From a virus, in IMG/VR virus record IMGVR_UViG_3300036985_000740, positions 1 to 27,957 of that record: a stretch of DNA of 27,957 nucleotides; one strand, written 5' to 3'. The notes beneath the pieces were generated by a model, which did not search any database, was not told where the DNA came from, and was given only the letters and a program-made list of their open reading frames with translations. Position 1 is the stretch's first letter. Each line of letters opens with the position of its first letter. Both the position numbers and the translations under genes were made by a program. Positions 1 through 25,601 of this stretch are shown piece after piece.

Positions 1-144
1 TATCTTCCTAAAGATGCCATTAAATCGCTGACGCCGGCTGAATATGCTGCTACAAGCAAAGCCAAGCGCGAAGGTAAGAAGGCTGGAAAGCAGTTTGTTG
101 CCCAGCCTAAGTCCATCGCTAAGAAAACGGCGAGGTTCAGATGA
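1..144 (+). CDS. C-terminal end of an unidentified phage protein (partial)
   Basis: The window opens inside a reading frame that gives 47 residues before a TGA stop. The tail is strongly basic: it contains AKREGKKAGK and ends in KKTARFR. I do not recognise the family. Its place directly before a head-tail adaptor gene suggests a head-region gene (portal, capsid or small head protein), but that is inference from position only. Its stop overlaps the ATG of the homing endonuclease gene as ATGA. The GAGG at 132-135 lies inside this gene and serves as the ribosome binding site for the next start. Confidence 0.7.
   Translation, partial: YLPKDAIKSLTPAEYAATSKAKREGKKAGKQFVAQPKSIAKKTARFR
132..135 (+). 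promoter_or_regulatory. Shine-Dalgarno GAGG for the homing endonuclease (ancestrally probably for adaptor 1)
   Basis: GAGG lies five bases before the ATG at 141. If the inserted endonuclease gene were removed, this site would sit at the same distance before the adaptor protein's ATG. The adaptor now has only a weak GGTGG-like site before its start at 794. The insertion seems to have taken over the original ribosome binding site, leaving the adaptor dependent on coupling through the ATGA overlap. Confidence 0.55.
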
Positions 145-797
145 CGACTAGCGGCAACTTCTGTGTTTACAAGATTACCAATCGGGTAAACGGGAAGTTT
201 TATATCGGCATTACAAGGAATGCGCCCGAATTCCGTTTCAGGCAGCATGTTAACAATGCTCGCTATAAGGCCAAGTATAGCCGAATTGCAGCTGCAATTA
301 TCAAATACGGAAAAGAAAATTTTTTCGTAGAGGTTTTAGAAACCCACAGCAGCGACGAGCAAGTGAAGTTGGCGGAAATACGCCTTATTAAAGAAGCCTG
401 TCCGCACTATAATGTGACATTGGGCGGAGATGGAACAACAGGACATACCCTTAGCGAGGAGCAGCGCCAGAAGGCGAGAGAGCGGATGCTGGGATCCAAA
501 ATTAATCTTGGCAATAAGTGGTCAATTGAAAGCAGGGCCGCTCTCAGTGCAAAGCTGAAGGGCAAAAAGCCGCCAAAAGAAACGCAACTTATGCGGGAAA
601 CTAGAGTCTCTAACTTTAGAAAAACTGCGGCAGCCGCAAGAAAGAAAGTTGTGTGCATCACAACTGGAGATGTTTATGAGAGTGTCTCAAGCGCAGCTCA
701 GGCGCATGGTTTGTGCAAGACCACTGTGTCTGCTATATGCTGCAAGAAGAGGAAGGCCGCTTATGGCATTCAATTTAAATTTGCGGTGGCAGCATGA
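141..797 (+). CDS. GIY-YIG homing endonuclease with NUMOD3 and NUMOD1-like DNA-binding modules
   Basis: A free-standing homing endonuclease of 218 residues. The N-terminal GIY-YIG nuclease domain shows the VY pair (residues 9-10), YIG (21-23), conserved Arg/His in RFRQH (32-36), the likely metal-binding Glu79 in LAEIRLIK, and Asn91 in the HYN motif. Residues about 97-145 (GGDGTTGHTLSEEQRQKARE and onward) match the NUMOD3 repeat type. Residues about 167-212 (a VVCITTG strand, YESVSSAAQAHG and TTVSAIC helices) look like a NUMOD1/IENR1 helix-turn-helix module, giving the usual cleavage-then-binding order. The gene starts in an ATGA overlap with the upstream gene and ends in an ATGA overlap with adaptor 1. 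It is probably selfish and cuts phage copies that lack it at this site. All visible catalytic residues are intact, so it is likely active. Confidence 0.92.
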   Translation: MTTSGNFCVYKITNRVNGKFYIGITRNAPEFRFRQHVNNARYKAKYSRIAAAIIKYGKENFFVEVLETHSSDEQVKLAEIRLIKEACPHYNVTLGGDGTTGHTLSEEQRQKARERMLGSKINLGNKWSIESRAALSAKLKGKKPPKETQLMRETRVSNFRKTAAAARKKVVCITTGDVYESVSSAAQAHGLCKTTVSAICCKKRKAAYGIQFKFAVAA

Positions 798-11681: not shown

Positions 11682-11929
11682 TAGGCATCGATCCTCGCGG
11701 CATTGATCAGTTTATTGACTGGGCTGATTATATGTATCCTGACCTGCAGCAGTTTGGCGTAATAACGCAGATGATGCCCGGCGCAAACTGGCAGGATTGG
11801 GCTGCTGGCTTACAGGCTTTGAATAAAATAGCTGAGATCGGCGCTCCTAATCCATATCAGTTTGATGACTGGAAACTTTGGGCAATGCGGTTTATACAGT
11901 TGCTGGATAGTGGCGGGAGTGGTTCGTAA
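11678..11929 (+). CDS. Small conserved phage protein starting with GTG
   Basis: An 83-residue protein whose start is GTG 11678 in a GTGA overlap with the nozzle gene. It contains IDQFIDWADYMYPDLQQFG, then WQDWAAGLQALNKI and PYQFDDWKLWAMRFIQLL. This tryptophan-rich 'W.DWA.GL ... P..F.DW..WA.RF' layout is a recurrent small protein between nozzle and ejection genes in podophages. Function unknown; perhaps a minor virion protein. Stop overlaps the next ATG as TAATG. Confidence 0.75.
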   Translation: MIGIDPRGIDQFIDWADYMYPDLQQFGVITQMMPGANWQDWAAGLQALNKIAEIGAPNPYQFDDWKLWAMRFIQLLDSGGSGS

Positions 11930-14778
11930 TGTATGAATTTGGTATCATGGAGGGGTTCGGCGCTGACTATTTTAACAGCCCAGCTTTCCAACAGGCTATC
12001 GCTGCTGCTGTACAACAGTATTCTCCAGCCCCCGTCGAGCCGGTTTATTATGCGCCGGAAACATTTCGTGGGATTGGCCGTGGTGGTGAGTATGATTATT
12101 ACGAGCCGGCCCCGACTTATTACGAGCCCGAACCAGCCCCAGTTTATAATCCGCCCCCAGTTTACACGCCGCCGCCAGAGGAATTTCGCGGCGTTGATCG
12201 TGGCGCTAGGCAAGATTATTACCAGCCGGGCATCGGGTTTCTTCCTGAGGAAACATACGCTCCAGCCCCAGAGCCAATACGCACGCCAGCTGTAGAGCCC
12301 ATGACCGTCGAAGCTGAACCTGTAGCTGGCATTGGCTCCCCTGCCGTTGCTGCACCAGCCGCAGCTCCTTCGATTATTGAGACTGCTGCAGCTGCTCCAG
12401 CTCCGGCTGCTGGTACTGGCCTGCAGGTTGTTAATGCAAATAGTTGGTCGCCAAGCGATGCTGACCTTCAGGCCATGACCCTAACAAGGGATCAGTGGAA
12501 TGAAGCTATGGCTTCATTTTCTAAGATGGATCTGGGTAATTTGAATTTTGGCGGTTTGTCCGGGGTTAAAAATCCTGATTACACTGACAAGTACAAAATG
12601 TTCAAAGCGCCTCTTTCTAACAAGGGTAATGCGACTTCTGAAGTATCGAAAAAAGATAACACATTTAGCGTAATTGAGGGCCAGCCAGTCCGACTCGTTG
12701 ACATGAGTACTGGCAAGGTTGTCTTCCAAGGGAATGGCTACGAGGCAGCTGATAAAGCCATCGAGCTTGCTACGACGTTGACCAAAGCTGGCGGGAACAA
12801 GGCAGACTGGGAAATTCAAACCAGCCAATTTAAGAATCCCGGCTCTGGAGACTTACAATTTGGTGGTGATTTCAAAACCGTTGCAAATGAGAAGAAAAAC
12901 ACCAGCTTTATCAATAAGGCTCTTGATGTTTTGGGTGACGCAGCCCTTGGGTTTATTATCGGTGGCCCAGTCGGCGCAGGTATTGCTGCTGCTGCCAGTG
13001 TAGCTGGTGTCAACGTATCTGACATTGCTTATCCGATAATTGCAGTGGCAGTCCTTGGCCCAGTGGGCCCTCTTGCTACTGCTGGCGCAGCTGCTCTTGG
13101 CTCCGCTGTTTCAAGCACGATCCAAGGCAGATCTCTTGAGGAGACATTGATTAGAGCGGGCGTAACGGGTGTAACGGCTGGTGTTATGACGGGCACTGAA
13201 ATTGGTGGGGAAATTTCAAAAGCGGTTAGCGACACTCTTAAAAGTATTGGCGTTGAATCTCAGACTGGCGCCATCGGGAGTAAGATTGGCAATCTTATAA
13301 ATGGCACGGTTGATAATGCTGCTGGTGATATTATTGTAACTGCGGCAAAAAAAGCGGCAGAAGAGGCTCTAAAGGCGACAACCGCATCAGGAATTGGAGG
13401 AGCTGTCTCGTCAGTTGTCAACAAAGCAGTTATTGATTCTGTCCAGAAAACTATTGCCGAGGAAGCGGCAAAGGCAAATGAGATTGTCGTTACTGGAAAC
13501 TTAGCGGATACTGTTTTGGCTGGTTACAATCCGGTTGTAGAAACAGCAGCTGGCATTGCAGGCGGCCTCACGGGAGTTGGGGATCTGGTCGATTCGCCTG
13601 AACTTCGAGACAGGATTGCTGAAGAAAAGGCACGTACTGAAGAGGCTAATCAAGCGGCTGCTGAGGAAGAGATTGTTGTCACAGCCACGCCGGAACCTGA
13701 GGTTATTCCTGTTCCTGTTCCTGAGACATCTGGCATCGGAGGCATTATTCCTGTTGAGGTTCCGCCTTCGACAGTTGCTGATGAGCCAATCGTTGTTGAA
13801 GGCACTAAGGTTGTGCAGCAACCTCCGGCAGAGCCTGTTCCTGAGGTAGCTGGCATTGGCGGAGCTATAGAGCCCATCGTTGTTACAGCTCCAAAGGTTG
13901 TGCAACCACCTCCAGAAGAGCCTGCTCCTGAGACTTCGGGTATAGGCGGAGCTATAGAACCAATCGTTGTTACTGCTCCAAAGGTTGTGCAGCCGCCTCC
14001 AGAAGAGCCTGAGGTTACTGGTACACCCATTCCGGGTGTTGAGACTTTAATCAAATCACCTGAGTTCCAAGAAGATCTTGCTGATGAGAAGGCCGGTGAG
14101 GACAAAGAAAAATCCCTGTTGGAAAAAATAGGCGACGCTGCTGATATAGCGTCTGCCGTTCTTCCAATAGTCGGGGGGATTGCTGGTGGCGGCGGCGGCG
14201 GCGGCGGTACGCTTACCCCAGACACGACTGGAATAAACTTCACGAAAACCACGTTGAGGCCGACTATTCCTGCTGGCGGTATCGGCGGAGTTGGCGGTCG
14301 CTATCCTTATACGCCAGAGACATATGGCCGGCGCGGTGGTGATCAGGAGACAGAGTATCTGTTCTTCACGAAAGATCCTGTGACTGGTCAAGAAACAGTT
14401 CAGTCTGCGCCTGCAGTTTCAGTTGTTAATCCTGACACGGTTCCCGTCAAAAAAGAAGGCGGCGAAATCAACGATGATATGGTAAAGCATCTTGTTGATT
14501 ATCATAAGAACGGCGGTCATCAAGGCCCCGGACAGGTAAAAGGCATCGGCAGCGGGCAGGAAGATAAGATTCCTGCATATCTCTCCGATGGTGAATATGT
14601 CTGGAGCGCGCAGGATGTTTCTGATCTTGGTGATGGCTCAAATCGTGAGGGTGTACGCCGTCTTGATAAAATGCGCCAAATGGTGCGTAGTCAGGCCGGA
14701 CGTAAAGATGTAAAAAAGATTGCAAAACCCCAGAAGGGTATAGATAGAATGCTCAAAGCTGTTGGAGGAATGGCGTAA
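11929..14778 (+). CDS. Large low-complexity internal virion-type protein with IVVTA repeats
   Basis: A 949-residue protein. Residues about 30-150 are rich in Pro, Tyr, Glu and Ala, with a duplicated FRG..RG...DYY.P unit (near 44 and 89). Residues about 335-400 are long Ala/Gly-rich hydrophobic helices (LGDAALGFIIGGPVGAGIAA, YPIIAVAVLGPVGPLATAGA), suited to membrane insertion. From about 460 to 700 short IVVTA/IVVTG units recur with GIGG and PPPEEP spacers, including an 87-base tandem duplication. A poly-Gly run (about 751-760) precedes a C-terminal domain with GIGSGQEDKIPAYLSDGEYV (residues about 870-890), a motif I know from phage internal virion and tape-measure-like proteins. A DNA ejection role is inferred from this and from its neighbours. 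Confidence 0.72.
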   Translation: MYEFGIMEGFGADYFNSPAFQQAIAAAVQQYSPAPVEPVYYAPETFRGIGRGGEYDYYEPAPTYYEPEPAPVYNPPPVYTPPPEEFRGVDRGARQDYYQPGIGFLPEETYAPAPEPIRTPAVEPMTVEAEPVAGIGSPAVAAPAAAPSIIETAAAAPAPAAGTGLQVVNANSWSPSDADLQAMTLTRDQWNEAMASFSKMDLGNLNFGGLSGVKNPDYTDKYKMFKAPLSNKGNATSEVSKKDNTFSVIEGQPVRLVDMSTGKVVFQGNGYEAADKAIELATTLTKAGGNKADWEIQTSQFKNPGSGDLQFGGDFKTVANEKKNTSFINKALDVLGDAALGFIIGGPVGAGIAAAASVAGVNVSDIAYPIIAVAVLGPVGPLATAGAAALGSAVSSTIQGRSLEETLIRAGVTGVTAGVMTGTEIGGEISKAVSDTLKSIGVESQTGAIGSKIGNLINGTVDNAAGDIIVTAAKKAAEEALKATTASGIGGAVSSVVNKAVIDSVQKTIAEEAAKANEIVVTGNLADTVLAGYNPVVETAAGIAGGLTGVGDLVDSPELRDRIAEEKARTEEANQAAAEEEIVVTATPEPEVIPVPVPETSGIGGIIPVEVPPSTVADEPIVVEGTKVVQQPPAEPVPEVAGIGGAIEPIVVTAPKVVQPPPEEPAPETSGIGGAIEPIVVTAPKVVQPPPEEPEVTGTPIPGVETLIKSPEFQEDLADEKAGEDKEKSLLEKIGDAADIASAVLPIVGGIAGGGGGGGGTLTPDTTGINFTKTTLRPTIPAGGIGGVGGRYPYTPETYGRRGGDQETEYLFFTKDPVTGQETVQSAPAVSVVNPDTVPVKKEGGEINDDMVKHLVDYHKNGGHQGPGQVKGIGSGQEDKIPAYLSDGEYVWSAQDVSDLGDGSNREGVRRLDKMRQMVRSQAGRKDVKKIAKPQKGIDRMLKAVGGMA
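13852..14010 (+). repeat. Tandem 87-base repeat (about 1.8 copies)
   Basis: Copy 1 spans 13852-13938 and copy 2 13939-14010, each starting at the GIGG codons and running through EPIVVTAPKVVQPPPEEP. The copies differ only at silent or near-silent positions and diverge after GAAGAGCCT. A more degenerate unit lies just upstream (13735-13850). The units encode 29 residues each in a proline-rich linker. Confidence 0.9.
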
Positions 14779-15716
14779 TGGCTATCACAGAAACCGTCAC
14801 ACAAACCAAGCTACCCCAGTGGCTTGTTGATGCTTATACCAAGAGCATCGAAAGGGGCGCAACGGCTACGAGCGCTGACTATCAGCCCTATACTGGTGGC
14901 CCGCGTATTGCTGCAATTTCTCCTGAGGAGCAGCAAGCCTATCAGATGACATCCGAGAACGTCGGAAACTATCAGCCATACACGCAGGCTGCTGGTGAAT
15001 ATATCGCAGGTGGCACGCAATCATTCTCTGATCCGGGTGTCGCATCTAGCTATATGAATCCGTATACCCAGAACGTCGTTTCTGGCATTGGCGCTGCAGC
15101 TGGTCGCAACCTGTATGAGAATCTGCTACCTGCTGTGAACCGCACATTCATTGGCGGTGGCACGTTTGGTGGTAGCCGGAGCGCTGAGTTCACAGCGCGT
15201 GCGGTGCGCGATGCCAATGCAGCTGCTCTGTCGGCCCAGAACGAGGCTCTTCAGAAGGGCTATGAAAGCGGCATGGGTCAGTTTAACACTGAAGCTGGTC
15301 GCTACCTCACGGCAGCTGAGCGGGCACAATCGCTTGGTCGTGACGTTCAGAACTTGGCTGGAACTGACACAGCTGCGCTTGAAGCGGCTGGCCGCGCACA
15401 GCGTGGGTTTGAGCAGGAATCGCTTGACTTGGCTAGGTCTGATTTTGAAGCCCAGCGTGATTATGATTACACGCAAGCTCGGCGTTTTTCGGACATCGTT
15501 GGCACGCCAAGCGCAAGCGGATCAGGCACTCGTTATGAGCAGTCTCCCGGTGTAAATAAAACCGCACAGACTATCGGTGCTGTTGCAACGGGCATTGGCG
15601 CTCTTGGGAATCTGTTTGGGGCGCGTAAAGTTAAGGACGGCGGCCCAATTAACGCCGATGGCAAGCGTAACATCAAGCACCCGATGCACGGACTTGGATG
15701 GCTGAAAGGTAAATAA
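14778..15716 (+). CDS. Internal virion / DNA ejection protein (312 aa)
   Basis: A 312-residue Ala/Gln/Tyr-rich helical protein. It has the recurrent podophage pattern of a short start, then ISPEEQQAYQMTSENVG, SSYMNPYTQNVVSGI (residues about 92-106), GGGTFGGSRSAEFTARAV, and long helices with AGRYLTAAERAQSLG. A GAVATGIGALGNLFGARKV hydrophobic segment lies near the C-terminus, and the end is a DGGPINADGKR tail. Such proteins are ejected to help DNA across the envelope; this is inferred from family resemblance. TAATG coupling upstream; one base separates its stop from the next ATG. Confidence 0.75.
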   Translation: MAITETVTQTKLPQWLVDAYTKSIERGATATSADYQPYTGGPRIAAISPEEQQAYQMTSENVGNYQPYTQAAGEYIAGGTQSFSDPGVASSYMNPYTQNVVSGIGAAAGRNLYENLLPAVNRTFIGGGTFGGSRSAEFTARAVRDANAAALSAQNEALQKGYESGMGQFNTEAGRYLTAAERAQSLGRDVQNLAGTDTAALEAAGRAQRGFEQESLDLARSDFEAQRDYDYTQARRFSDIVGTPSASGSGTRYEQSPGVNKTAQTIGAVATGIGALGNLFGARKVKDGGPINADGKRNIKHPMHGLGWLKGK

Positions 15717-15717
15717 G

Positions 15718-17151
15718 ATGGCGATGACACCTCAGCAAGCACGAGCAAGAGCGCTGCAGTTGCGGTCTTTGCAGCCTGAACTGCAGAGCGTGGCCATTGA
15801 CGATCTCATCGCGCAGGTCATGGCAACTGAAGGGATGGGCGCTCCGGGCGCTGGCAGCGGTGGGCTTGCGGATTTGTTCCCACCCAAGACGCTCTCTGCA
15901 GCTTCCCCAGCGCCTATGGCGGCTGCTCGGTTTCAGGCTGCTAAGCCGACTGCTGCTATTATTCCGGCTGCAGGTGCAGGCACTGATGCCTTCCGGCGGG
16001 CGAAGGAAGTTCGTGAGCGCACAGATCAGGGGCCTACTGTTGGTGAGAGAACGGCTGCTAACGCACGGGTGGATGAACTCATTGCCGAATTGCCTAAAGC
16101 CTCCGGGCCGCGTCCGCCTGAGGTAGTACCTGTGCGTGAGGCCAGCCCCGTAGCTGCGGCTATGGCTGCTGCTGAAGCTCCGGCAAAAGCTACATACAGA
16201 TCGCGCTTTAGGCCACAGCTTGAGCAGGCGCAGGCTGAACTTGAGCAACTTAAGGGGACTATACCAGCGATTTCTGAAACTCCTCCTGAACTGGCGTCTA
16301 AGATAACAAACCTATCTGGCGTAGTTACTCGACTACAGGGCTTGGTTTCCGCTGAAGAGGGTGCTGTTGTTGATACTGATCGGGCAGCTTTATTGGAGCG
16401 TCAAACGGCACGCCTTGGTCGTGAAGAAGAGTTAGTTGAGCAGGCACGCAAACGCGCTCCGTTTGATGCGCTGATTGCGGGTGGCGTTGCACTTGGATCG
16501 GCAAGGCCCGGCGAGAGCTTCACCTCTGCATTAACTCGTGGCCTAGCAGCTGGTAACGAAAGCTACACAGGCGCTCGCGATGCTCGTGAAAAATCTCTTC
16601 GCGGCATTGAAGAGAAGCGCGATACGTATACCTTGCAGAAGATAGATGCAATTCAGGCCGCCCGTGATAAGGCGATTGCTCTGCAAGATGCAGGAGTGCA
16701 GCTGAGTAAAGATGAATATGCTTTGGCAAACTTAAGAAATGAAGATATTGTCAAATTGGCTACTCGCGAGGATGTTATTAGCGAAGCTAAATCAAAGGCT
16801 TCTAAAGCTAAGACCGAGGCCGATACTGCGTTGGAAACAATTAATACTGAGAATGATTACAAGAGAGCTCAGGCCGCATATTACAGGCTCGGCGGTCGCA
16901 GCGCTGGCGTTGGCGTTGATAAGCCTATGACGGCAAATCAAGTCCAGACAAAAATCGGCGATCTTAACAAAGAGCGTCGCGGATTAATGATTGAACTTAA
17001 CAGTCCTACGACGCAAGGCGCTGAGAAGGCAGCCGTTAAGCTGGCGATTCAATATATAGATATAGAACTGGGAGAGTTGAAAGGGTCGCGTTCGTCCTCT
17101 GGAACGGCTAAACCAGCAGGTAGAATTATTTCTTCTAAACCAATCAAATAA
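15718..17151 (+). CDS. Coiled-coil internal virion protein (477 aa)
   Basis: A 477-residue, mostly helical protein. It begins with TPQQARARALQLRSLQPEL, is proline/alanine-rich to about residue 160, then has coiled coils (YRSRFRPQLEQAQAELEQLK, and LLERQTARLGREEELVEQAR). The segment DALIAGGVALGSARPGESFT (about 246-265) and the following GLAAGNESYTGARDAREKSL are hydrophobic-to-helical elements I associate with ejection proteins of marine and freshwater podophages. A long charged helix follows. The C-terminus is a basic, Ser-rich tail. Likely part of the ejection apparatus together with its neighbours; no enzymatic motif is seen. Confidence 0.72.
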   Translation: MAMTPQQARARALQLRSLQPELQSVAIDDLIAQVMATEGMGAPGAGSGGLADLFPPKTLSAASPAPMAAARFQAAKPTAAIIPAAGAGTDAFRRAKEVRERTDQGPTVGERTAANARVDELIAELPKASGPRPPEVVPVREASPVAAAMAAAEAPAKATYRSRFRPQLEQAQAELEQLKGTIPAISETPPELASKITNLSGVVTRLQGLVSAEEGAVVDTDRAALLERQTARLGREEELVEQARKRAPFDALIAGGVALGSARPGESFTSALTRGLAAGNESYTGARDAREKSLRGIEEKRDTYTLQKIDAIQAARDKAIALQDAGVQLSKDEYALANLRNEDIVKLATREDVISEAKSKASKAKTEADTALETINTENDYKRAQAAYYRLGGRSAGVGVDKPMTANQVQTKIGDLNKERRGLMIELNSPTTQGAEKAAVKLAIQYIDIELGELKGSRSSSGTAKPAGRIISSKPIK

Positions 17152-17166: not shown

Positions 17167-20100
17167 ATGGCAAACTATCGATATACATATGAATCTGGCG
17201 GAAGACGCTATGAAATAGACGCTCCGAAGGGTTCTACGGCGGCTGACCTTCAAGCAATTGTTGACGGTTCTGGGCGGATGGCTGCGCCGCTACCGCCTGC
17301 TGCGCCTAAGCCTAAGCCTAAGAAGAAGGAAGAAGAGTCGTTTCTCAGCGGGGTTATACCGACGCTGCAGAGTGCTACTGGGAAGGTTATCTCAACATCC
17401 GGCGAGTTAATGCAGCAATTCGCGCCAATCCTTGGAAGACTGAACAATGCCGGCGCGCCGGGTATTGCGCTGGCTGGAGTTTTGGGTCGTGAGTATGGTA
17501 AGGGAATTACAGCTAGTGGTGAGGCTAAACTACCAGAGGCAAGCCTTGCTGATCGTCGCAGGCAACAGGCTGAGATAACCGGTGCAACGCCAGATATATA
17601 CTCTAAAGCGCTTTCCGTTTTTGGCCGAGCAGCTGCAGCCAATCCCACTGTTGGACGCTTGGCACAAGAATTCTTACCCCAGACTCCTGTAGAAGCGGCT
17701 CGTACAATAGCTACGGTTAAGGCTCCGTTCCAAACAGCGCGAGGCGCTTCTGAGTTTGTGGCTAGTCAGATTCCTGCTTCGCTTATCCCGCTGGGTGGCG
17801 GTAAGGCTGTGCAGCTTGCAAGGGGCGCATTCCTTCCAGTTGCAGGACGTGAGGCTGCTAAAGCCGCTCTTGCCAAGGAAATTGGCGTAGGTGTTGCTAC
17901 TACGGGTGGCGTAATAAATGCGGCTAGTGCTGGTAGCCAAGCCTATGATGATGTGCTTGCTAAGGGTGGAACCCAAGAAGAGGCTGACCGCGCATTCAAG
18001 ATAGCAGCGCTTGGTGCTGGGGCTGTGTCTGGTGCTGCGTCCAGAATGACAGGTCTTGAGCAGCTGGCGTTTGCTGAAAAGCCAGCGCGAGGTGGCATTC
18101 TTCGTTCAGCTGGTCGCGCAGTTATCGGCGAGGCTCCGCAGGAATTCGTTGAAGAAGGCGGCGCTACGCTGGCAACGAACGTCGCTAAGCTCGGTACTGC
18201 AGCAGAAGTTCCCATCGGTGAAGATGTTCTGTCTTCCGGTGCTTTAGGTGCTATCGGCGGCGGCATAATCGCTGCTCCAATTGGTGGCCTTCAGGGGCTT
18301 GCTAATAGGGGCGCGGCAGATGATGATACGCCTGCAGCCCCACGCGCACCGCGCACGCCGCCCCGCGCTCCACCACCACCTGCTGACATGGGCGCTCTCA
18401 CCCAAGCTCTTGGCCCAGTCGGCGGTAAGATCACGCTTAACGAACCATCCGGGCCACGGGACTATACATTCGAGGGCTTCGACGAAGATGGCGGTGTTGT
18501 CCTCGCGGATGCCGATGGCGTAGTATTCTCTGAAGATCCCGCTCAGGTTCAGGCCGCAATCAAGGCTGGTGTTGCTGCGCCGGCAAGCGGCTTAGGTGGC
18601 ATGGCCTTTGGTATGGATATTACTGAGGGTCTGTCTGATGTGGTCGCGCCACCACCACCTCCGCCGCCGCCACCTCCGCCAACGCCTACGGCTGAATACG
18701 TTCCGCCTGCTCCGAAGCCGAAGCTAATCATTGAAACGGCAGAAGAAGAAGCGACGCGGAAGGCTGAGCAGGCCGTAAGGGATGCGCAGAGAAGGGAAGC
18801 TGCTGCGCGGGAGCCTGCGCCTGCGCCTTCAGCGTTCTTTCCGGGAACGTATAAGCCGAAGCTAATCATTGAGGCCGAACCCACCACCATCCTACCTATC
18901 GAGGAAGATGTCGCCTCCTACATGCAGGAGTATGCGGCCACTCGCACGCCCAGCCAGATGACTCAGGTCGAGGACAGCGCCCGTCAGATTGCTACTGAAC
19001 GTGGGGCAACAAGTGTGTCAAAGCAGGACATGCTTCAGGCTGGTATGGCCTTTGATAATGCGCTCTTTAAGGCAACGCCAGATGAAGCGCCTGAGAAGGT
19101 TGCTATAGCACCATACCGTCCAGACAAGCGTGAGCCTGCTGTTGTGTGGGATAAATTTAACAAGTCTTTTGAAGGACAGGACTTCCCGAATGTGTCATGG
19201 GCACTGGGATCTGACTGGGGTATGGGTAGAGGTGTACCTACCAAGGCATCCTACCGTCGTGATGCCGAAGCCCGGATGGAGAGCCTGTATGGGCCGCGTC
19301 CAGAAGCTGTACAGGAACCTGTACAACCAGCGCCAGTGGCCGAGGCCCCGTCACCACGGAATACACAGAAACAATCTAAAGTTGGCAATGTAATCTTCGA
19401 CCAAGAAAACGGTGTTGGTCAGGTTCCGTTAAACCAGAATGTAAAATATCGCGGCTTTACAGCCATGATGCGCCCATCAAAATTCCTTGAACTAGCTGCT
19501 GATATTGACAAGCCAAAGCAATCCAGCCTTAATTTTATTCGAGATTCTATTGATGAAGGCAGGGGCGTTGGTTCGCCATTCCTGTCATTGGATTTTAAGA
19601 CAGGCAAGATAAAAGGCCATGATGGTCGCCACCGGATGATGGTCATTCAGGAAAAGAATGGGGATGAGCCTGTCCCAGTCCATATCTTTGGGGAAGGCGA
19701 AGGTCGCGCAAGATCGCTTAATGAGGGGAAAATCAACGCCTTTGCTTCGAATCTGACGAGTGAACGCGGTAATCAATCTTCAGATAATTTCTCCGAGGCA
19801 TTTCTTGAAGATGCTGTAGTACCCGTAACTCCAGCTGCGCCGCCACCAGCAGCAGCACGCGCCGTAGGTAAGTCTGGCCGCGCCACCATCCCGGCAACAC
19901 GCGAGAAGGTTGATGTGCAGTATGAGCTGCAGGATCTGGAAAACATCCGGTTTGCCGAAGGTGATCTTCAAAACCGTGACCGCAGCCGGCCACAGACGCA
20001 GCAATTCCTAAGCCGGTTCACCAGCACGTTTGATCCCGATGGGCTTGGCGAAGACCCATCAACGGATCGCGGTGCGCCGGTCATCAATAAAGATAACACC

Positions 20101-22578
20101 ATCCTTAGCGGTAACGGTCGCACTCTGGGCCTTGAGGAAATATACGAAAATTATCCTGAACAGGCCGAGGCATATCGCCAGTTCCTGCGCGAACAGGGTT
20201 ATGACATCGAGGGTGTCGAGCGTCCAGTTCTGGTGCGCCGCCTCATGTCGGATGTTGATGAGCGCAAGTTCGTCGTTGGTTCAAACGAGCCAGACATCGC
20301 CGCTCTATCCCCACCTGAGCAGGCTGCGCAGGACGCAAAAGACATTTTGACACCCGGAGTGTTCGCAAAGTTCAAGGGCGGCGATCTTAATGCTGCGAAG
20401 AACGACGCATTTGTTTCGGCCTTCCTTGCTGAAATGAGCCAGCAGCAGCGTGAAAACGCAATGGATGACAAGGGCAAGGTCAGCTCTCAAGCGCTCAAGC
20501 GGATTGAAAATGCGCTTCTGTACAAGGCTTACGGCGGTACTGGCCGAGCTTCTAAGATATTTATCAGTAAGGCGATGGAGCGCAATGACGATGACACCAA
20601 GACACTGACCAATTCTCTGGTCGATGTGTCGAAGGACTGGATTGGTTTCCAGCAGGCCATTGAGGCCGGTGAGGTTGATAAGAAATACGACATCACCGGC
20701 AAGCTGATGGAAACAATTGGCACTGCATCGGACATCAAGGCCAGCGGGAATAGCGTTGCATTCGAGCTGCGCAGCCCTGACATGGTTGAGCCAATGGATC
20801 CGTTTGTGAGGGAGATCCTTCTTGCCTTCCATAACGATGATGTTTCCCGCATCCTCAGCAGGAAAGCTATTGCTGAAAAGCTAAAGGCATATACGGAAGT
20901 TGCTGCCGTTCAGCAGGCCGAACCCGACATGCTTGGAATGTCAGAGACTCCATCGGCGCGTGACATTTGGAGGCGGATCGATAAAGGCGAGGGCGCTCCT
21001 CAGTCTGATTTGTATGCTAGTGTTGAAGAGCCAAGGGATGTATCGCAGCAAGACATAGAAGAGATACGGAAGGTTCCGTCCCTGAAGCGTGGCCTTGCGA
21101 AGCTCATCAAGTACAAAGATGACCAGCTAATCGATGACGCTGAGTTTGCAAAACAAGTCGCTGATCTAAAAGATTACGTTGACTACATGCAGGAAGCAAA
21201 GAATTACCGATTGAGTAAGAAGGGCCGTGTGCGCGGCGGTGATCGTGTGCTTTCGGAGATGCTTAAAGCCCGACGTGCAGGGAACATCGATCCCGATAGC
21301 GTTGATTTTGCAATGTGGGCGCTTAAAGGTAACCCAAGCCTTGCCGATGGCCTCGCAATTTCGATACTTACGCCTAAAGAGAAATCGCCAGCGGGTGATT
21401 ATGAGCCCGTCACACGTGTCATGACGCTTTTTAAGGGCCGAGCATCCGATACCACTGCTGTTCACGAGCTTCTGCATCATACAGAACGCATGATGCCTGC
21501 TGATATTCAGGATGCTATCCGTGCGACATGGTTGCGTGAATTTAATAAGCAGGAAAAAAAGGCTAAGAGCGGTACGTTTGAAAAGGCTTACTTTAGGGCT
21601 CTCAGGGCTTTTCACAGTGGTGAACAAATTACGGTGGGTAAAGAAAACTTCCCATCTAAAAAGGGATTAGATATTGCTTTCAACCTGATTCGGAAAGGAT
21701 ATGTTCCGTACTCCTATTATCAGTACGTCAACCCGTCAGAGTTCTGGGCGGTGAATGCCACAGAGATTATGCAAAAGCGGTTTGATGTCAGTGAATCAAT
21801 TCTTGGCCGCCTTCGTAACTGGCTATCTGAATTTGTGGAAAGGGCAAAGGGCCTCTTCAATCTCAGCGCAAAGTCACCACTGCTCAAGGCGCTCGATAGT
21901 CTCGCCAAGGCTGACGGTAAGTTTAATTCTCAGGAAATGCTTTCCGATGAGGACACTCGGTACATGGACATCACGCCCCTTGATGAGAAGCGCACTGAGA
22001 AAAAACTCAAAGAGCTAGAGTCCATCCTTGGTGATCTTGACAAGGCGATGAAGGATGAGGCGTTTGGCATTCCTCAGATGCAGCGGCAGATTGTTAGCGC
22101 CTTGGATAATGCTCTCAATAATCTGGATGACATTGCAGACAATGCGCCGGCTGAGTTTAATGATAGGATCGATGACCTTGAAATTAAAATTGCTGACCTC
22201 AAGGCTATTGCGGGTGCATCACTAAAGCCCGCCAACGAGAACAAGCTAGAGACTGAGGTTCAAAAAGCTGACCGTGAATTGGAAGTGGCCCGTCAGGCTT
22301 TGGATAAAGCCTTTGATGATGATCGCGCCTACATGGATCGTCGAACCAAAGATCGCAAGGCGTATGATAAAGAGTACGACCAGCTTGAAAAAATCTATGA
22401 CGAAGCATTCGCCAAGTGGGACAAGCTCTATCGTGAGGAATCAGCCGCTATCATGATGGCCCTTACCAACGGCACGCCCGACCAGATGCGCAATGCAGTT
22501 GCAAAAGCGCAGAAACCAGACGATAAGATCAATGGCGAAGGCGCTGACTTGCAGAAGAAAAACCGAGGGTGTGACTGA
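17167..22578 (+). CDS. Giant polyvalent protein: two ParB-like domains plus HELLH zincin-like metallopeptidase
   Basis: 1803 residues. Residues 1-38 are a small domain (YTYESGGRRYEIDAPKGSTA) common at the start of phage ejection proteins. Residues 195-380 contain Ala/Gly-rich hydrophobic helices. A poly-proline linker lies at 494-508. Residues about 749-851 are ParB/sulfiredoxin-like, with GHDGRHRM (817-824). Residues about 899-1245 match the DdrB-like ParB domain, with ILSGNGRTLG (979-988). A coiled segment follows. Then comes a metallopeptidase-like domain with His1433-Glu1434-Leu-Leu-His1437 and a downstream NPSEFWAVNATE (1522-1533) that can supply the third zinc ligand. The C-terminus (about 1605-1803) is charged coiled coil. 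This combination is typical of phage polyvalent proteins thought to be injected with DNA to counter host responses. Its stop overlaps the next start as TGATG. Confidence 0.8.
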   Translation: MANYRYTYESGGRRYEIDAPKGSTAADLQAIVDGSGRMAAPLPPAAPKPKPKKKEEESFLSGVIPTLQSATGKVISTSGELMQQFAPILGRLNNAGAPGIALAGVLGREYGKGITASGEAKLPEASLADRRRQQAEITGATPDIYSKALSVFGRAAAANPTVGRLAQEFLPQTPVEAARTIATVKAPFQTARGASEFVASQIPASLIPLGGGKAVQLARGAFLPVAGREAAKAALAKEIGVGVATTGGVINAASAGSQAYDDVLAKGGTQEEADRAFKIAALGAGAVSGAASRMTGLEQLAFAEKPARGGILRSAGRAVIGEAPQEFVEEGGATLATNVAKLGTAAEVPIGEDVLSSGALGAIGGGIIAAPIGGLQGLANRGAADDDTPAAPRAPRTPPRAPPPPADMGALTQALGPVGGKITLNEPSGPRDYTFEGFDEDGGVVLADADGVVFSEDPAQVQAAIKAGVAAPASGLGGMAFGMDITEGLSDVVAPPPPPPPPPPPTPTAEYVPPAPKPKLIIETAEEEATRKAEQAVRDAQRREAAAREPAPAPSAFFPGTYKPKLIIEAEPTTILPIEEDVASYMQEYAATRTPSQMTQVEDSARQIATERGATSVSKQDMLQAGMAFDNALFKATPDEAPEKVAIAPYRPDKREPAVVWDKFNKSFEGQDFPNVSWALGSDWGMGRGVPTKASYRRDAEARMESLYGPRPEAVQEPVQPAPVAEAPSPRNTQKQSKVGNVIFDQENGVGQVPLNQNVKYRGFTAMMRPSKFLELAADIDKPKQSSLNFIRDSIDEGRGVGSPFLSLDFKTGKIKGHDGRHRMMVIQEKNGDEPVPVHIFGEGEGRARSLNEGKINAFASNLTSERGNQSSDNFSEAFLEDAVVPVTPAAPPPAAARAVGKSGRATIPATREKVDVQYELQDLENIRFAEGDLQNRDRSRPQTQQFLSRFTSTFDPDGLGEDPSTDRGAPVINKDNTILSGNGRTLGLEEIYENYPEQAEAYRQFLREQGYDIEGVERPVLVRRLMSDVDERKFVVGSNEPDIAALSPPEQAAQDAKDILTPGVFAKFKGGDLNAAKNDAFVSAFLAEMSQQQRENAMDDKGKVSSQALKRIENALLYKAYGGTGRASKIFISKAMERNDDDTKTLTNSLVDVSKDWIGFQQAIEAGEVDKKYDITGKLMETIGTASDIKASGNSVAFELRSPDMVEPMDPFVREILLAFHNDDVSRILSRKAIAEKLKAYTEVAAVQQAEPDMLGMSETPSARDIWRRIDKGEGAPQSDLYASVEEPRDVSQQDIEEIRKVPSLKRGLAKLIKYKDDQLIDDAEFAKQVADLKDYVDYMQEAKNYRLSKKGRVRGGDRVLSEMLKARRAGNIDPDSVDFAMWALKGNPSLADGLAISILTPKEKSPAGDYEPVTRVMTLFKGRASDTTAVHELLHHTERMMPADIQDAIRATWLREFNKQEKKAKSGTFEKAYFRALRAFHSGEQITVGKENFPSKKGLDIAFNLIRKGYVPYSYYQYVNPSEFWAVNATEIMQKRFDVSESILGRLRNWLSEFVERAKGLFNLSAKSPLLKALDSLAKADGKFNSQEMLSDEDTRYMDITPLDEKRTEKKLKELESILGDLDKAMKDEAFGIPQMQRQIVSALDNALNNLDDIADNAPAEFNDRIDDLEIKIADLKAIAGASLKPANENKLETEVQKADRELEVARQALDKAFDDDRAYMDRRTKDRKAYDKEYDQLEKIYDEAFAKWDKLYREESAAIMMALTNGTPDQMRNAVAKAQKPDDKINGEGADLQKKNRGCD

Positions 22579-25500
22579 TGATAGGATCTAACTGCTCCCT
22601 TGATATAGCGGATGTCGCTATGAATAATCCGCCAGAGCCTCCGGTCTTCATGGATCCGATTAGCAACATCTCATTCTGGACATCTTGGGTTCGGCCCGCA
22701 ACCGCTGTTGCTCGGAAAAGTAGTTTCTTTGCGCGTATGCACAAGGCGACGAACGATAAAGTCAAGATGCGAAATCTTCTCATGGCTGATTATGAGGGAA
22801 TGCTGCATGAATTGAACCAGCTGCCACAGGAATCTAAGAATAAGATTAACGCGGTCGTTGAGTATCTCCGCCTTTCAAGAACTGCCGTGCGCGACACTGG
22901 CCGTAATTTTGCCATTGTTACCCGTGAGATCCGACGTGATGGCGCGGATGGTATTGAACGACGCCTTTCGCCCGCACTATCTAAACCGGGCCAGACATTA
23001 AAGCTGGACGCAAATGAAACTCGCATGATGCACGAGATGCGGGAATATCTGGATAGCCGCTACACCTTGAATGCTAAGTCGCAGCTGGCAGCTCTTGGTT
23101 ACAATGGCGAATACAGCCGTCAGGGTATCGAGGAGGGGGTTGAGGACGATACCTTCCGCGACGAGCTGCTGCGCCTGTTCGACGCTATCGAGTCGCAGCG
23201 CCTGACATCTTACATCCCGTTCATGCGTTCGGGCGATACGCGCATCATGGTCTATGGCCCTGACGGTACGATAGACAGCGGCGCTTTCTTTATGCTGGAC
23301 AGTCTTAGTTGGTTGAAGGAGCTGGTCGGGCCGAAGATTGCAAAGACAATTCCAGACCCTAACATCGACGGTAAGATTGCTGAGATTCAGAAGAAGTACC
23401 CTGCCAGCGATGGATACAAAATCGTTGTGAGCCGCAAAGCTGCCGACGCAAACGAGCGCCTATCCATTGATGACCTATCTGGTTTGGATAAACTTCTGGG
23501 CCTGATGGATGCCAACGCTGGTAAGATCATCAAGGATTACTTTGATCGGACGATGGGTGGCATGTTCTCTCAAGAGACTGTTGGTGGACTAAGCGCGGCG
23601 AATGCAGAGCAGGTTGCGCGTGGCGTGATTGCTGGTCTTCCGCAGAGCGTGCGCTCTGTTCTGATGCAGGATCTTATCTCTGGTTTTATGAAACAATCCC
23701 GTGACATTCCGGGATACGATACAAACTTCACGGATCGGTTGCTTGATTACAACCGCATCGTTGCATCTACGGTTTCGCATCGGATGTATCGCGAGGAATA
23801 CGCTGAGGCATTCGATGATCTAAAGCGCAACGTAAACGATACTGAGCGTAAATATGCCGAAAAGTGGGATGAATATGTCGATAGCCCTGAGCATGTCATG
23901 TGGCGTGGGCTTAGGACGATTGGCTTTTTTGGCTCTATGTGGGGTAGCGTTGCATCCTCAACGGTCAATGCCATGTCTGTTTGGACAGTCACGGCCCCAC
24001 AGATGACGATCATGAAGGGGTCTGCTGGCCTCGATATTTATAAGATGTCAGCTCAGGTTATAGCTGGATTCCGTGGTCAGGTCGGATATGGAATGCACGT
24101 TGATCCATACGCAATACCGGGTCTTACGGATGAAGAGAGAGAGGCCCTAATCCTTGCAAACAAGCGGGGGACTGTTCGGGCCCAGATGAATCCAGAGCTT
24201 ATGGGCGTCGAAAGCGAAGTCATGGCGTCCCGTGGCGGCGGAATTAAGCGGACAGCCCAGCGCTATTTCCAATACGGAGCCAGTGTTATCTCGGTTACTG
24301 AAGAGATGAACAAGGCTGCTGCTTTTATTGTGGCGTATCGGTATGCCAAAGATCCGAAGGCTTTAAAGAATTGGAAGGAAGCCTACAGCAAAAACGAGCG
24401 TGCCAAGATCATCATTGAGGAAGGCTCTAATCCTTATGATGTCGCTGAATTTATGGTTGAGACAGCGACATTCATGGGTGGTCAGATTGAAAAGCCGCCT
24501 GTCATGCGCGGGGCGGGTGGGGTGCTTTTGCAGTTTTCCCAGTACGCATTGCAGACAATGTTCTTGCTGTCTGAAAATCTGCGCAATCAGGGGCCTCGTG
24601 GTAAAGTCGCAGCCGTGTTTACAATCATGACGATGTGGACTGTATCCGGTTTGCTATTTGCAATTCCGTTTGGTGACGATGCAATCAATATCTTCCAATA
24701 TGCGTATAACAATATTTGGAAGAAAAAATTAGATTTTCGCACTGAGGCGCAATTAATGCTGGCCGAGATGTTCGGTGGTGGAGAAGATGCCCGTAGAGAT
24801 GCTGAGGCAATCCTACGTGGCCCATCTCGCTCATTGCTTGGATTGAATCTTAGTGAGCGGGTTGGCTTCACATCAGTCATTCCTGAATTTAATGACGGCC
24901 TTGCGATTGTCCCTGCCATCTCAACCAGCGTCCTAAAGATCTCAGAGTATCTTGATCGTCGCCAATCTGGAGTGCAGCCCATTGGTGCTTATGTGGCAGC
25001 CGTATCTCCGTTCATTGGTAAGGGGCCGTCGGATCTCCTAAAAGGCTTTGTGCAGTACCCGCAGGAGGGTGTCAGGACGCGCTACGGTAGGCTCGTTATA
25101 GAACCTGAGGAGTTACCATTTAAGGAGCAGGCTAAGCGTGGCTTAGGCTTCCAGTCAGCTGACATTGCACGCGAGATGCAGGCGAGGCAGGCCGGGAAGG
25201 AAGTTTCTGAGTCAACGCGAAACGCAGAGCGGAGAAATACGTTGCGCCTTGGCAAGCTGCTGGCAGATGCAGCCAAGGCTGACAAGGCTGGTAAAAAAGC
25301 TGAGGCAGAAAATATTCGCATGGAATTTGATAAAGAAATTCAGAAAATTTCCAAAGAGTATGGAGCTGAACTTCAAAAAGGAAATATGGAAGACGCCATC
25401 AAGCCGCCGTCAGATCAGACTCTTAAAAACGCCATGATGGCAGAGCTATATCCGGGTATGAAGCTCGACAGAGTTGGTAAGCTCAAGCGTCCGGCTTACG

Positions 25501-25601
25501 AAGAGATTTACAAGACGATCAAAGTTGAAGATGAAGAGGGCCAATACGAAGATGGCGAGTACGAAGTGGAAGGCGGCACTGAGGCCGCCCTCCCTCAGTA
25601 A
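22578..25601 (+). CDS. Second polyvalent-type protein with LPD38/PLxRFG-like region (1007 aa)
   Basis: 1007 residues. Residues 95-215 are helical, followed by SYIPFMRSGDTRIMVYG (211-227), which resembles the conserved 'YFPL.R.G' element of large polyvalent proteins. Mid and C-terminal parts hold hydrophobic stretches (446-475, 675-700) and the segment GGVLLQFSQYALQTMFLLSE (647-666), like the membrane-proximal helix of the LPD38-type domain. The C-terminal 160 residues are charged helices with an acidic end. No catalytic motif is seen. In other phages such domains lie at the C-terminus of one giant protein, so this gene may be the detached end of the 1803-residue protein. It starts at ATG 22578 with GAGGG eight bases upstream. 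Confidence 0.72.
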   Translation: MIGSNCSLDIADVAMNNPPEPPVFMDPISNISFWTSWVRPATAVARKSSFFARMHKATNDKVKMRNLLMADYEGMLHELNQLPQESKNKINAVVEYLRLSRTAVRDTGRNFAIVTREIRRDGADGIERRLSPALSKPGQTLKLDANETRMMHEMREYLDSRYTLNAKSQLAALGYNGEYSRQGIEEGVEDDTFRDELLRLFDAIESQRLTSYIPFMRSGDTRIMVYGPDGTIDSGAFFMLDSLSWLKELVGPKIAKTIPDPNIDGKIAEIQKKYPASDGYKIVVSRKAADANERLSIDDLSGLDKLLGLMDANAGKIIKDYFDRTMGGMFSQETVGGLSAANAEQVARGVIAGLPQSVRSVLMQDLISGFMKQSRDIPGYDTNFTDRLLDYNRIVASTVSHRMYREEYAEAFDDLKRNVNDTERKYAEKWDEYVDSPEHVMWRGLRTIGFFGSMWGSVASSTVNAMSVWTVTAPQMTIMKGSAGLDIYKMSAQVIAGFRGQVGYGMHVDPYAIPGLTDEEREALILANKRGTVRAQMNPELMGVESEVMASRGGGIKRTAQRYFQYGASVISVTEEMNKAAAFIVAYRYAKDPKALKNWKEAYSKNERAKIIIEEGSNPYDVAEFMVETATFMGGQIEKPPVMRGAGGVLLQFSQYALQTMFLLSENLRNQGPRGKVAAVFTIMTMWTVSGLLFAIPFGDDAINIFQYAYNNIWKKKLDFRTEAQLMLAEMFGGGEDARRDAEAILRGPSRSLLGLNLSERVGFTSVIPEFNDGLAIVPAISTSVLKISEYLDRRQSGVQPIGAYVAAVSPFIGKGPSDLLKGFVQYPQEGVRTRYGRLVIEPEELPFKEQAKRGLGFQSADIAREMQARQAGKEVSESTRNAERRNTLRLGKLLADAAKADKAGKKAEAENIRMEFDKEIQKISKEYGAELQKGNMEDAIKPPSDQTLKNAMMAELYPGMKLDRVGKLKRPAYEEIYKTIKVEDEEGQYEDGEYEVEGGTEAALPQ
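25572..25599. terminator. Possible nested hairpins at the convergent gene junction
   Basis: GGCGGC (25572-25577) pairs with GCCGCC (25584-25589) over a six-base loop. A second, mutually exclusive stem pairs ACTGAGG (25578-25584) with CCTCAGT (25593-25599). Both lie in the last codons of the 1007-residue gene, next to the minus-strand stop. No uridine run follows on either strand, so a classic intrinsic terminator is not shown; the place between converging operons is the main argument. Confidence 0.25.

What the first reader, a model, noticed from the sequence alone, without database searches (positions are those of the whole stretch)
17167..25601. Tandem giant polyvalent proteins at the end of the ejection-gene block
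Two adjacent, coupled genes (1803 and 1007 residues) carry an N-terminal ejection-protein-like leader, hydrophobic helices, two ParB-like domains, a zincin-like domain and an LPD38-like second protein. Polyvalent proteins (Iyer, Burroughs and Aravind) are proposed to enter the host with the DNA and act against host defences. Here they follow three internal virion-type genes, so this could be an injected anti-defence or host-takeover complex split over two polypeptides. The exact domain combination and split may be undescribed.
Basis: partly seen in the sequence, partly recalled or inferred. Interest (0 to 1): 0.75.

Follow-up and report, generated by a model that had tools for sequence, protein, structure and literature searches.

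The report
Split injected phage protein, cysteine-paired ends
A freshwater virus of bacteria makes its giant injected attack protein as two chains, and the only cysteine in each chain sits exactly at the two ends where the chains were once joined, suggesting a chemical bond that holds them together for delivery and could let go inside the cell.

Summary
The two coupled genes are real (17167-22578, 1803 aa; 22578-25601, 1007 aa) and end the ejection-gene block of a podovirus. PV1 is a polyvalent protein: exchangeable leader, a ParB-like module, a Pfam ddrB-ParB domain (E=6.5e-28), a zincin-like HELLHH module. PV2 is not LPD38 but a divergent PLxRFG ejection module (NCBIfam E=5.6e-29). PLxRFG normally ends single 1,800-5,100-aa proteins, and relative L052 is fused in one 1994-aa chain, so this is a gene fission.

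The surprise lies at the cut. Fused relatives and neighbouring ejection proteins are essentially cysteine-free. PV1 and PV2 hold one cysteine each: the penultimate residue of PV1 (NRGCD-end) and residue 6 of PV2 (MIGSNC), in all 28 split contigs (one PV1 has an extra Cys). Unrelated epsilon15-type gp16/gp17 pairs show the same: a sole cysteine 5-8 residues from the end of gp16 and one near the start of gp17, in 10/10 named phages and 43 of 44 assessable contigs. Best reading: effector and delivery chains rejoined by an end-to-end disulfide, probably reduced in the host cytoplasm. The bond is inferred, not shown; the papers searched describe nothing like it.

The parts
11929..14778 (+). 949-aa internal virion-type protein (g949), variable N-terminal part, Cys-free
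   Evidence: syntenic with GB2A gp065; 17 homologues with 0 Cys
14778..15716 (+). 312-aa DNA ejection protein, Cys-free
   Evidence: PHROG 4287 E=5.3e-14; 19 homologues, 0 Cys
15718..17151 (+). 477-aa internal virion-type protein (g477), Cys-free
   Evidence: synteny; 17 homologues, 0 Cys
17167..22578 (+). PV1, 1803-aa polyvalent effector chain (mosaic)
   Evidence: ORF; Pfam; mosaicism
17296..18708 (+). PV1 leader (aa 44-514), conserved also in the fused relative L052
   Evidence: 27% identity, E=2e-29 to L052 48-524
19375..19776 (+). ParB-like module 1 (aa ~737-870, GHDGRHRMMV)
   Evidence: fold hits; no Pfam hit
19900..20244 (+). ddrB-ParB domain (aa 912-1026; homology extends to ~1280)
   Evidence: PF18763 E=6.5e-28; P1 DdrB and others by tblastn
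21130..21942 (+). zincin-like module (aa 1322-1592), HELLHH motif at aa 1433
   Evidence: 37% identity to Pavtok gp27 region, E=1e-33; motif
22453..22575 (+). PV1 C-terminal tag (aa 1763-1803), kept on otherwise unrelated PV1 C-termini; ends NRGCD
   Evidence: dN/dS about 0.23 over 253 pairs
22570..22572 (+). C1802, sole cysteine of PV1, penultimate residue
   Evidence: same position in 28/28 split contigs
22576..22580 (+). TGATG stop-start overlap (translational coupling)
   Evidence: TGATG or TAATG in all split contigs with a junction
22578..25601 (+). PV2, 1007-aa PLxRFG-type delivery chain (constant, 63-87% identity in 20 relatives)
   Evidence: NF032893 E=5.6e-29; hhalign P=99.7
22593..22595 (+). 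C6, sole cysteine of PV2
   Evidence: same in 28/28; codons
23211..23234 (+). YIPFMRSG, degenerate counterpart of the YFPLxRFG motif, invariant in 21 PV2s
23529..25301 (+). match to NCBIfam PLxRFG model (aa 318-908)

Best explanation
PV1 and PV2 are the two halves of an ancestrally single polyvalent ejection protein. PV1 is the exchangeable effector chain (leader, ParB-like NTPase/DNase modules, zincin-like peptidase). PV2 is the constant PLxRFG delivery chain that works at the portal/envelope. After fission each chain gained one cysteine at its cut end, and these two cysteines join the chains end to end by an interchain disulfide, formed in the oxidising virion or host periplasm. Reduction in the host cytoplasm would then free the effector chain. 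Shown: fission, PLxRFG identity, mosaicism of PV1, constancy of PV2, cysteine pattern, gene overlap. Inferred: packaging, injection, the bond itself, where it forms and breaks, enzymatic activities.
For: 28/28 split contigs have the sole PV2 Cys at residue 6 and a PV1 Cys at position -2; only one PV1 (L018) has another Cys. Fused homologues are Cys-free: L052 (1994 aa), L057, L061, L063, L066, L068, ANC7919 (3216 aa), Pavtok (about 5000 aa), Y7, Y11 and others. Neighbouring ejection families: 0 Cys in 25,392 residues against 10-11 per 1000 in RecT/RecE. The Cys is kept through synonymous codon change (TGT/TGC) on PV1 tails whose bodies differ. Independent case: epsilon15-type gp16/gp17, sole facing terminal Cys in 10/10 named phages and 43 of 44 assessable contigs, 8/8 representatives below 50% identity; gp17 shows no detectable homology to PV2, and several large gp16-like chains are themselves polyvalent (ddrB-ParB, ART, zeta toxin). 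A PLxRFG giant (H66 gp60) is recorded as verified in virions by mass spectrometry; a 4515-aa DarB-like giant is in JC1 virions (PMC9144972).
Against: No structure or biochemistry of the pair: the AF2 model of PV2 is poor (pLDDT 48.5) and complexes could not be modelled. Disulfides do not form readily in the cytoplasm where virions assemble, so timing is a guess. The cysteines could instead make homodimers or bind a metal. The region around the PV2 start is also conserved at DNA level. A few giant fused proteins do have one or two cysteines (H66, 8P).
Confidence: 0.6

Rival explanations
1. Ordinary polyvalent injected proteins made as two non-covalently associated chains; the terminal cysteines are conserved for another reason, such as homodimer disulfides or a shared metal site.
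For: The polyvalent content and virion context stand without any disulfide. One Cys per chain could equally pair with its own copy; ejection proteins are multimeric.
Against: Does not explain why cysteines appear only in the split forms, on both chains, at exactly the facing ends, in two lineages without detectable homology.
Confidence: 0.25
2. The Cys codons are by-products of translation-initiation sequence (coupling element, ribosome-binding site or hairpin) at the gene junction.
For: Both codons lie within about 20 bases of the PV2 start; GGGTGTGAC is conserved in the main clade.
Against: Codons change synonymously while Cys stays (GGG TGT to GGC TGC); the consensus junction fold is weak (-1.0 kcal/mol, no covarying pair); in epsilon15-type phages the first-chain Cys sits 5-8 codons before the stop in varied sequence, some with 60-86 bases between the genes, and Cys is still kept.
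Confidence: 0.08
3. PV1/PV2 are mainly structural ejectosome parts (T7 gp16-like) and the ParB and zincin modules are degraded or irrelevant.
For: The same slot holds a 722-aa 'lytic tail protein' in Caulobacter phage GB2A; some PV1s lack ddrB-ParB and zincin (L021) or only the zincin (L009, L017, L049).
Against: Modules keep active-site-like motifs (GNGR, HDGRHR, HExxH) and swap as units, as expected of effectors.
Confidence: 0.15

Closest known systems
PLxRFG / 'DarB-like antirestriction' giant proteins of podoviruses (H66 gp60, Pavtok gp27, LASTA, Skulduggery, phage 8P)
   Same: PV2 aligns almost end to end with their C-terminus (P=99.7%); same last position of the virion block; Pavtok also shares the zincin-like module
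   Different: There one chain of about 1,800-5,100 aa; here two chains; PV2 motif is PFMRSG, not PLxRFG; facing cysteines absent there
Epsilon15-type gp16/gp17 (incl. Alcaligenes phage Piluca gp047/gp048)
   Same: Gene pair at the end of the ejection block; variable, sometimes ddrB-ParB-bearing first chain and constant second chain; sole cysteine at each facing end
   Different: gp17 has no detectable homology to PV2 (0.6%); gp16 tails unrelated to NRGCD
Phage P1 DdrB / DarB
   Same: DdrB-type ParB domain; P1 DdrB and DarB are virion proteins (PMC9024508) and DdrB is proposed to carry a C-terminal metallopeptidase (PMC5512222)
   Different: PV1 lacks the DarB methylase/helicase; delivery module separate; myovirus context
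LPD38-type polyvalent proteins of sister phages (L057, L061-L068)
   Same: Same genome slot and neighbours; L057 shares PV1 aa 714-1618 at 69%
   Different: Single chain ending in LPD38 (E=3.6e-27), no PLxRFG, no Cys
Disulfide-linked A-B protein toxins (analogy only, own knowledge)
   Same: Effector chain and delivery chain would be held by a redox-cleavable bond
   Different: No homology; phage cargo; bond not demonstrated

Membership tests
Polyvalent protein (Iyer et al. 2017) | several unrelated effector-type domains in one chain | tested here: met
   ddrB-ParB by Pfam plus ParB-like and zincin-like modules
Polyvalent protein (Iyer et al. 2017) | late/virion gene context | tested here: met
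   directly follows ejection protein genes
Polyvalent protein (Iyer et al. 2017) | packaged and injected | not testable with these tools
   only by homology: H66 gp60 in virions
DdrB-like ParB family (PF18763) | score above gathering cut-off | tested here: met
   97.8 bits against 27.6
LPD38 (PF18857) | profile match in PV2 | tested here: not met
PLxRFG (NF032893) | score above curated cut-off in PV2 | tested here: met
   101.1 against 100, supported by hhalign 99.7%
PLxRFG (NF032893) | literal PLxRFG motif | tested here: not met
   PFMRSG at the aligned position, invariant in 21 PV2s; I therefore call PV2 a divergent relative of the PLxRFG family, homologous by profile
PLxRFG (NF032893) | C-terminal part of a giant chain | tested here: not met
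   stand-alone in 28 contigs; fused in L052
Zincin metallopeptidase of polyvalent proteins | HExxH and third ligand region | tested here: inconclusive
   HELLHH plus NPSEFWA, shared region with Pavtok; no Pfam match
T7 gp16-type ejection protein | last, largest gene of the ejection block | tested here: met
T7 gp16-type ejection protein | sequence homology or transglycosylase domain | tested here: not met
   no SLT or gp16 match

The most novel reading that the evidence does not exclude
Short-tailed phages of at least two lineages deliver effectors as redox-cleavable two-chain proteins: a swappable polyvalent chain bonded through its only, C-terminal cysteine to the only, N-terminal cysteine of a constant ejection chain, in an otherwise cysteine-free injected proteome; reduction in the host cytoplasm releases the effector.
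Probability: 0.45. Interest if true: 0.9.

Novelty: new variant of a known kind. Interest (0 to 1): 0.8.

Why it matters
It offers a simple, testable answer to how phages hold exchangeable effector cargo on a conserved delivery protein and let it go inside the cell. It applies to well-known phages (epsilon15 and its relatives), so one non-reducing gel or existing virion mass-spectrometry data could decide it. It also gives a signature (sole facing cysteines) for finding injected effector/delivery pairs, and draws attention to the striking absence of cysteine from ejection proteins.

Tried and rejected
LPD38 assignment of PV2 (rejected). Programmed frameshift fusing PV1 and PV2: in this window the PV2 frame has a stop just upstream (TGTGACTGATG, sequence); re-initiation is simpler. 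Conserved RNA hairpin at the junction: weak, no covariation. Structure of PV2: AF2 too poor for a fold search. PDB fold search of PV1 725-1610: only a weak ParB-N hit (E=0.017); the viral library gives DdrB-like relatives. PDB sequence searches: nothing significant. The genome search 'relatives' is not available for a virus record. Zincin loss in split (4/18) versus fused (0/6) relatives: too few to argue from. A junction-pattern scan of viral contigs returned 28 hits, of which two (L099, L105) are chance. Literature searches for cysteine or disulfide in ejection proteins found nothing relevant in the held library. The PV2 N-terminus may correspond to LPD39 by alignment position but this has no Pfam support.

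Full report
What is there. The window is a 27,957-base virus record from a podovirus: SU10-type adaptors, tail fibre, a virion structural protein, a DNA ejection protein, then RecT and a YqaJ/RecE-type exonuclease on the other strand. The two genes in question are open, on the + strand, and share one base as TGATG. The same virion block, with the same gene order, is found in Caulobacter phage GB2A, where the slot of PV1+PV2 holds a single 722-aa 'lytic tail protein', and a similar order in Vibrio phage VS-ABTNL-3, where it holds a single 1790-aa PLxRFG protein.

PV1. Pfam finds ddrB-ParB (aa 912-1026, 97.8 bits), and tblastn finds P1 DdrB and DarB-like giants over aa 933-1280. An HELLHH module (aa 1322-1592) is 37% identical to a region of the Pavtok DarB-like giant. 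A further module with GHDGRHRMMV (aa ~737-870) occurs in many contigs in other settings. An AF2 model of aa 725-1610 (mean pLDDT 71) matches DdrB-like phage proteins in the viral library (best E=5e-31) and weakly a ParB-N domain in the PDB. Between relatives PV1 is a mosaic: lengths from 909 to 1896 aa in complete copies, several interchangeable N-terminal starts, ddrB-ParB absent in some, zincin-like modules of several kinds or none. Only the leader and the last 41 residues are kept throughout.

PV2. It matches NCBIfam PLxRFG (E=5.6e-29, just above cut-off) and, profile to profile, the C-termini of 13 known PLxRFG proteins over residues 8-920 (P=99.7%, E=7e-26). At the aligned place the eponymous motif reads YIPFMRSG, which is invariant in 21 PV2s. 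It is not LPD38. In known phages this module closes single chains of about 1,800-5,100 aa annotated 'DarB-like antirestriction', 'structural protein' or 'PLxRFG'. One of them, H66 gp60, is recorded as verified in the virion by mass spectrometry; in JC1, a 4515-aa DarB-like giant gave 51 unique peptides in virions (PMC9144972).

Fission and exchange. 28 contigs including the window carry PV1 and PV2 as separate, overlapping genes. The closest relative outside this group, L052 (PV2 part 50% identical), encodes leader, HEFIH module and PV2 in one 1994-aa frame. Sister phages L057 and L061-L068 have one chain ending in a genuine LPD38 module (E down to 1.6e-35 in the three scanned); L057 carries PV1 aa 714-1618 at 69% identity. 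So the effector part is joined to PLxRFG in trans (here), to PLxRFG in cis (L052) or to LPD38 in cis (L057). Since outgroup PLxRFG proteins are single chains, the split is the derived state (inference from these outgroups; no tree was built).

The cysteines. PV1 has one cysteine in 1803 residues, C1802, the penultimate residue; PV2 has one in 1007, C6. The same holds in 28 of 28 split contigs, with one extra cysteine in one PV1 (L018); six of the 28 show only part of PV1. The tag around C1802 is under protein-level constraint (dN/dS about 0.23 over the last 41 codons), the Cys codon changes between TGT and TGC, and neighbouring residues of C6 vary while C6 does not. L052, the LPD38-type relatives examined and most giant PLxRFG proteins have no cysteine at all. 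The three ejection-type neighbours have none in 25,392 residues of homologues, while RecT and RecE have 10-11 per 1000. T7 gp15 and gp16, N4 gp50-52 and P22 gp7, gp16, gp20 also have none. So cysteine is generally excluded from these ejected proteins, and the exceptions sit at the cut.

An independent case. Epsilon15 gp16 and gp17 and their relatives are adjacent, mostly overlapping genes at the same place in the ejection block. In ten named phages of eight host genera, gp16 has exactly one cysteine, 5-8 residues from its C-terminus, and gp17 exactly one, at residue 5 (10 or 12 in two). Of 46 further contigs examined, 43 show the sole pair; one (L145) has the pair plus one extra cysteine; in two (L188, L195) the script picked a short upstream frame that does not look like gp16, so they cannot be judged (L195 accounts for all four 'other' gp16 cysteines in that tally). 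All eight representatives below 50% identity comply. gp16 ranges from 424 to 1494 aa and the large ones carry ddrB-ParB, ART-PolyVal or zeta-toxin domains, that is, they are polyvalent effector chains. gp17 shows no detectable homology to PV2 or to the LPD38 module (0.5-6%). The arrangement therefore either arose twice or is older than detectable homology.

Mechanism. Established: giant ejected proteins must pass a narrow tail, probably unfolded (for N4 vRNAP see PMC12633501), and P1 Dar proteins are packaged and co-ejected (PMC12810830; PMC9024508). Inference: each effector chain is tethered through its terminal cysteine to the delivery chain, giving a head-to-tail continuation of what was one polypeptide; oxidation in the released virion or in the periplasm makes the bond, and the reducing cytoplasm breaks it. 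In single-chain polyvalent proteins release has been proposed to be by the built-in zincin peptidase (PMC5512222); a reducible bond would be another way, and four of 18 complete split PV1s indeed lack any HExxH, though the numbers are too small to argue from. What the ParB and zincin modules do after entry is not shown; NTP-dependent DNA nicking or NTP sensing is the literature's suggestion (PMC5512222).

Limits. All evidence is sequence-based. Contigs partly duplicate each other, and homologous conservation is not independent evidence; the strength lies in the contrast of fused against split and in the second, unrelated family. I found no published account in the held open-access library, which does not cover most subscription journals. 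Hosts are unknown; a near relative lies in an alphaproteobacterial pond MAG (L032).

Noticed in passing
L057:3395-10435 and L061-L068: Sister phages carry, in the same slot, single polyvalent chains of 1929-2402 aa ending in a true LPD38 domain; L057 shares PV1 aa 714-1618 at 69% identity, so the delivery module itself is exchangeable.
   Followed up: yes
window 11929-17151 and homologues: The three ejection-type families before PV1 contain no cysteine in 25,392 residues; T7 gp15/gp16, N4 gp50-52 and P22 gp7/gp16/gp20 are also cysteine-free.
   Followed up: partly
L110 (T7 gp14) and L112 (epsilon15 gp14): T7 gp14 and epsilon15 gp14 each have a single cysteine at residue 2, another sole terminal cysteine in an ejection-type protein.
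   Followed up: no
L163, L165, L174, L177, L200 upstream of gp17: Large epsilon15-type gp16 proteins (1099-1494 aa) carry ddrB-ParB, ART-PolyVal and zeta-toxin domains, so gp16 can be a polyvalent effector chain.
   Followed up: partly
window 141-797: GIY-YIG homing-type endonuclease gene next to a SU10-type adaptor gene.
   Followed up: no
window 11929-14778: g949 is itself strongly mosaic: only its last 100-250 residues are kept in distant relatives.
   Followed up: no
one PV1 relative in alignment A1: One PV1 carries a GyrB/HSP90-type ATPase domain (HATPase_c_3, E=1.4e-7), an unusual polyvalent module; which member was not determined.
   Followed up: no
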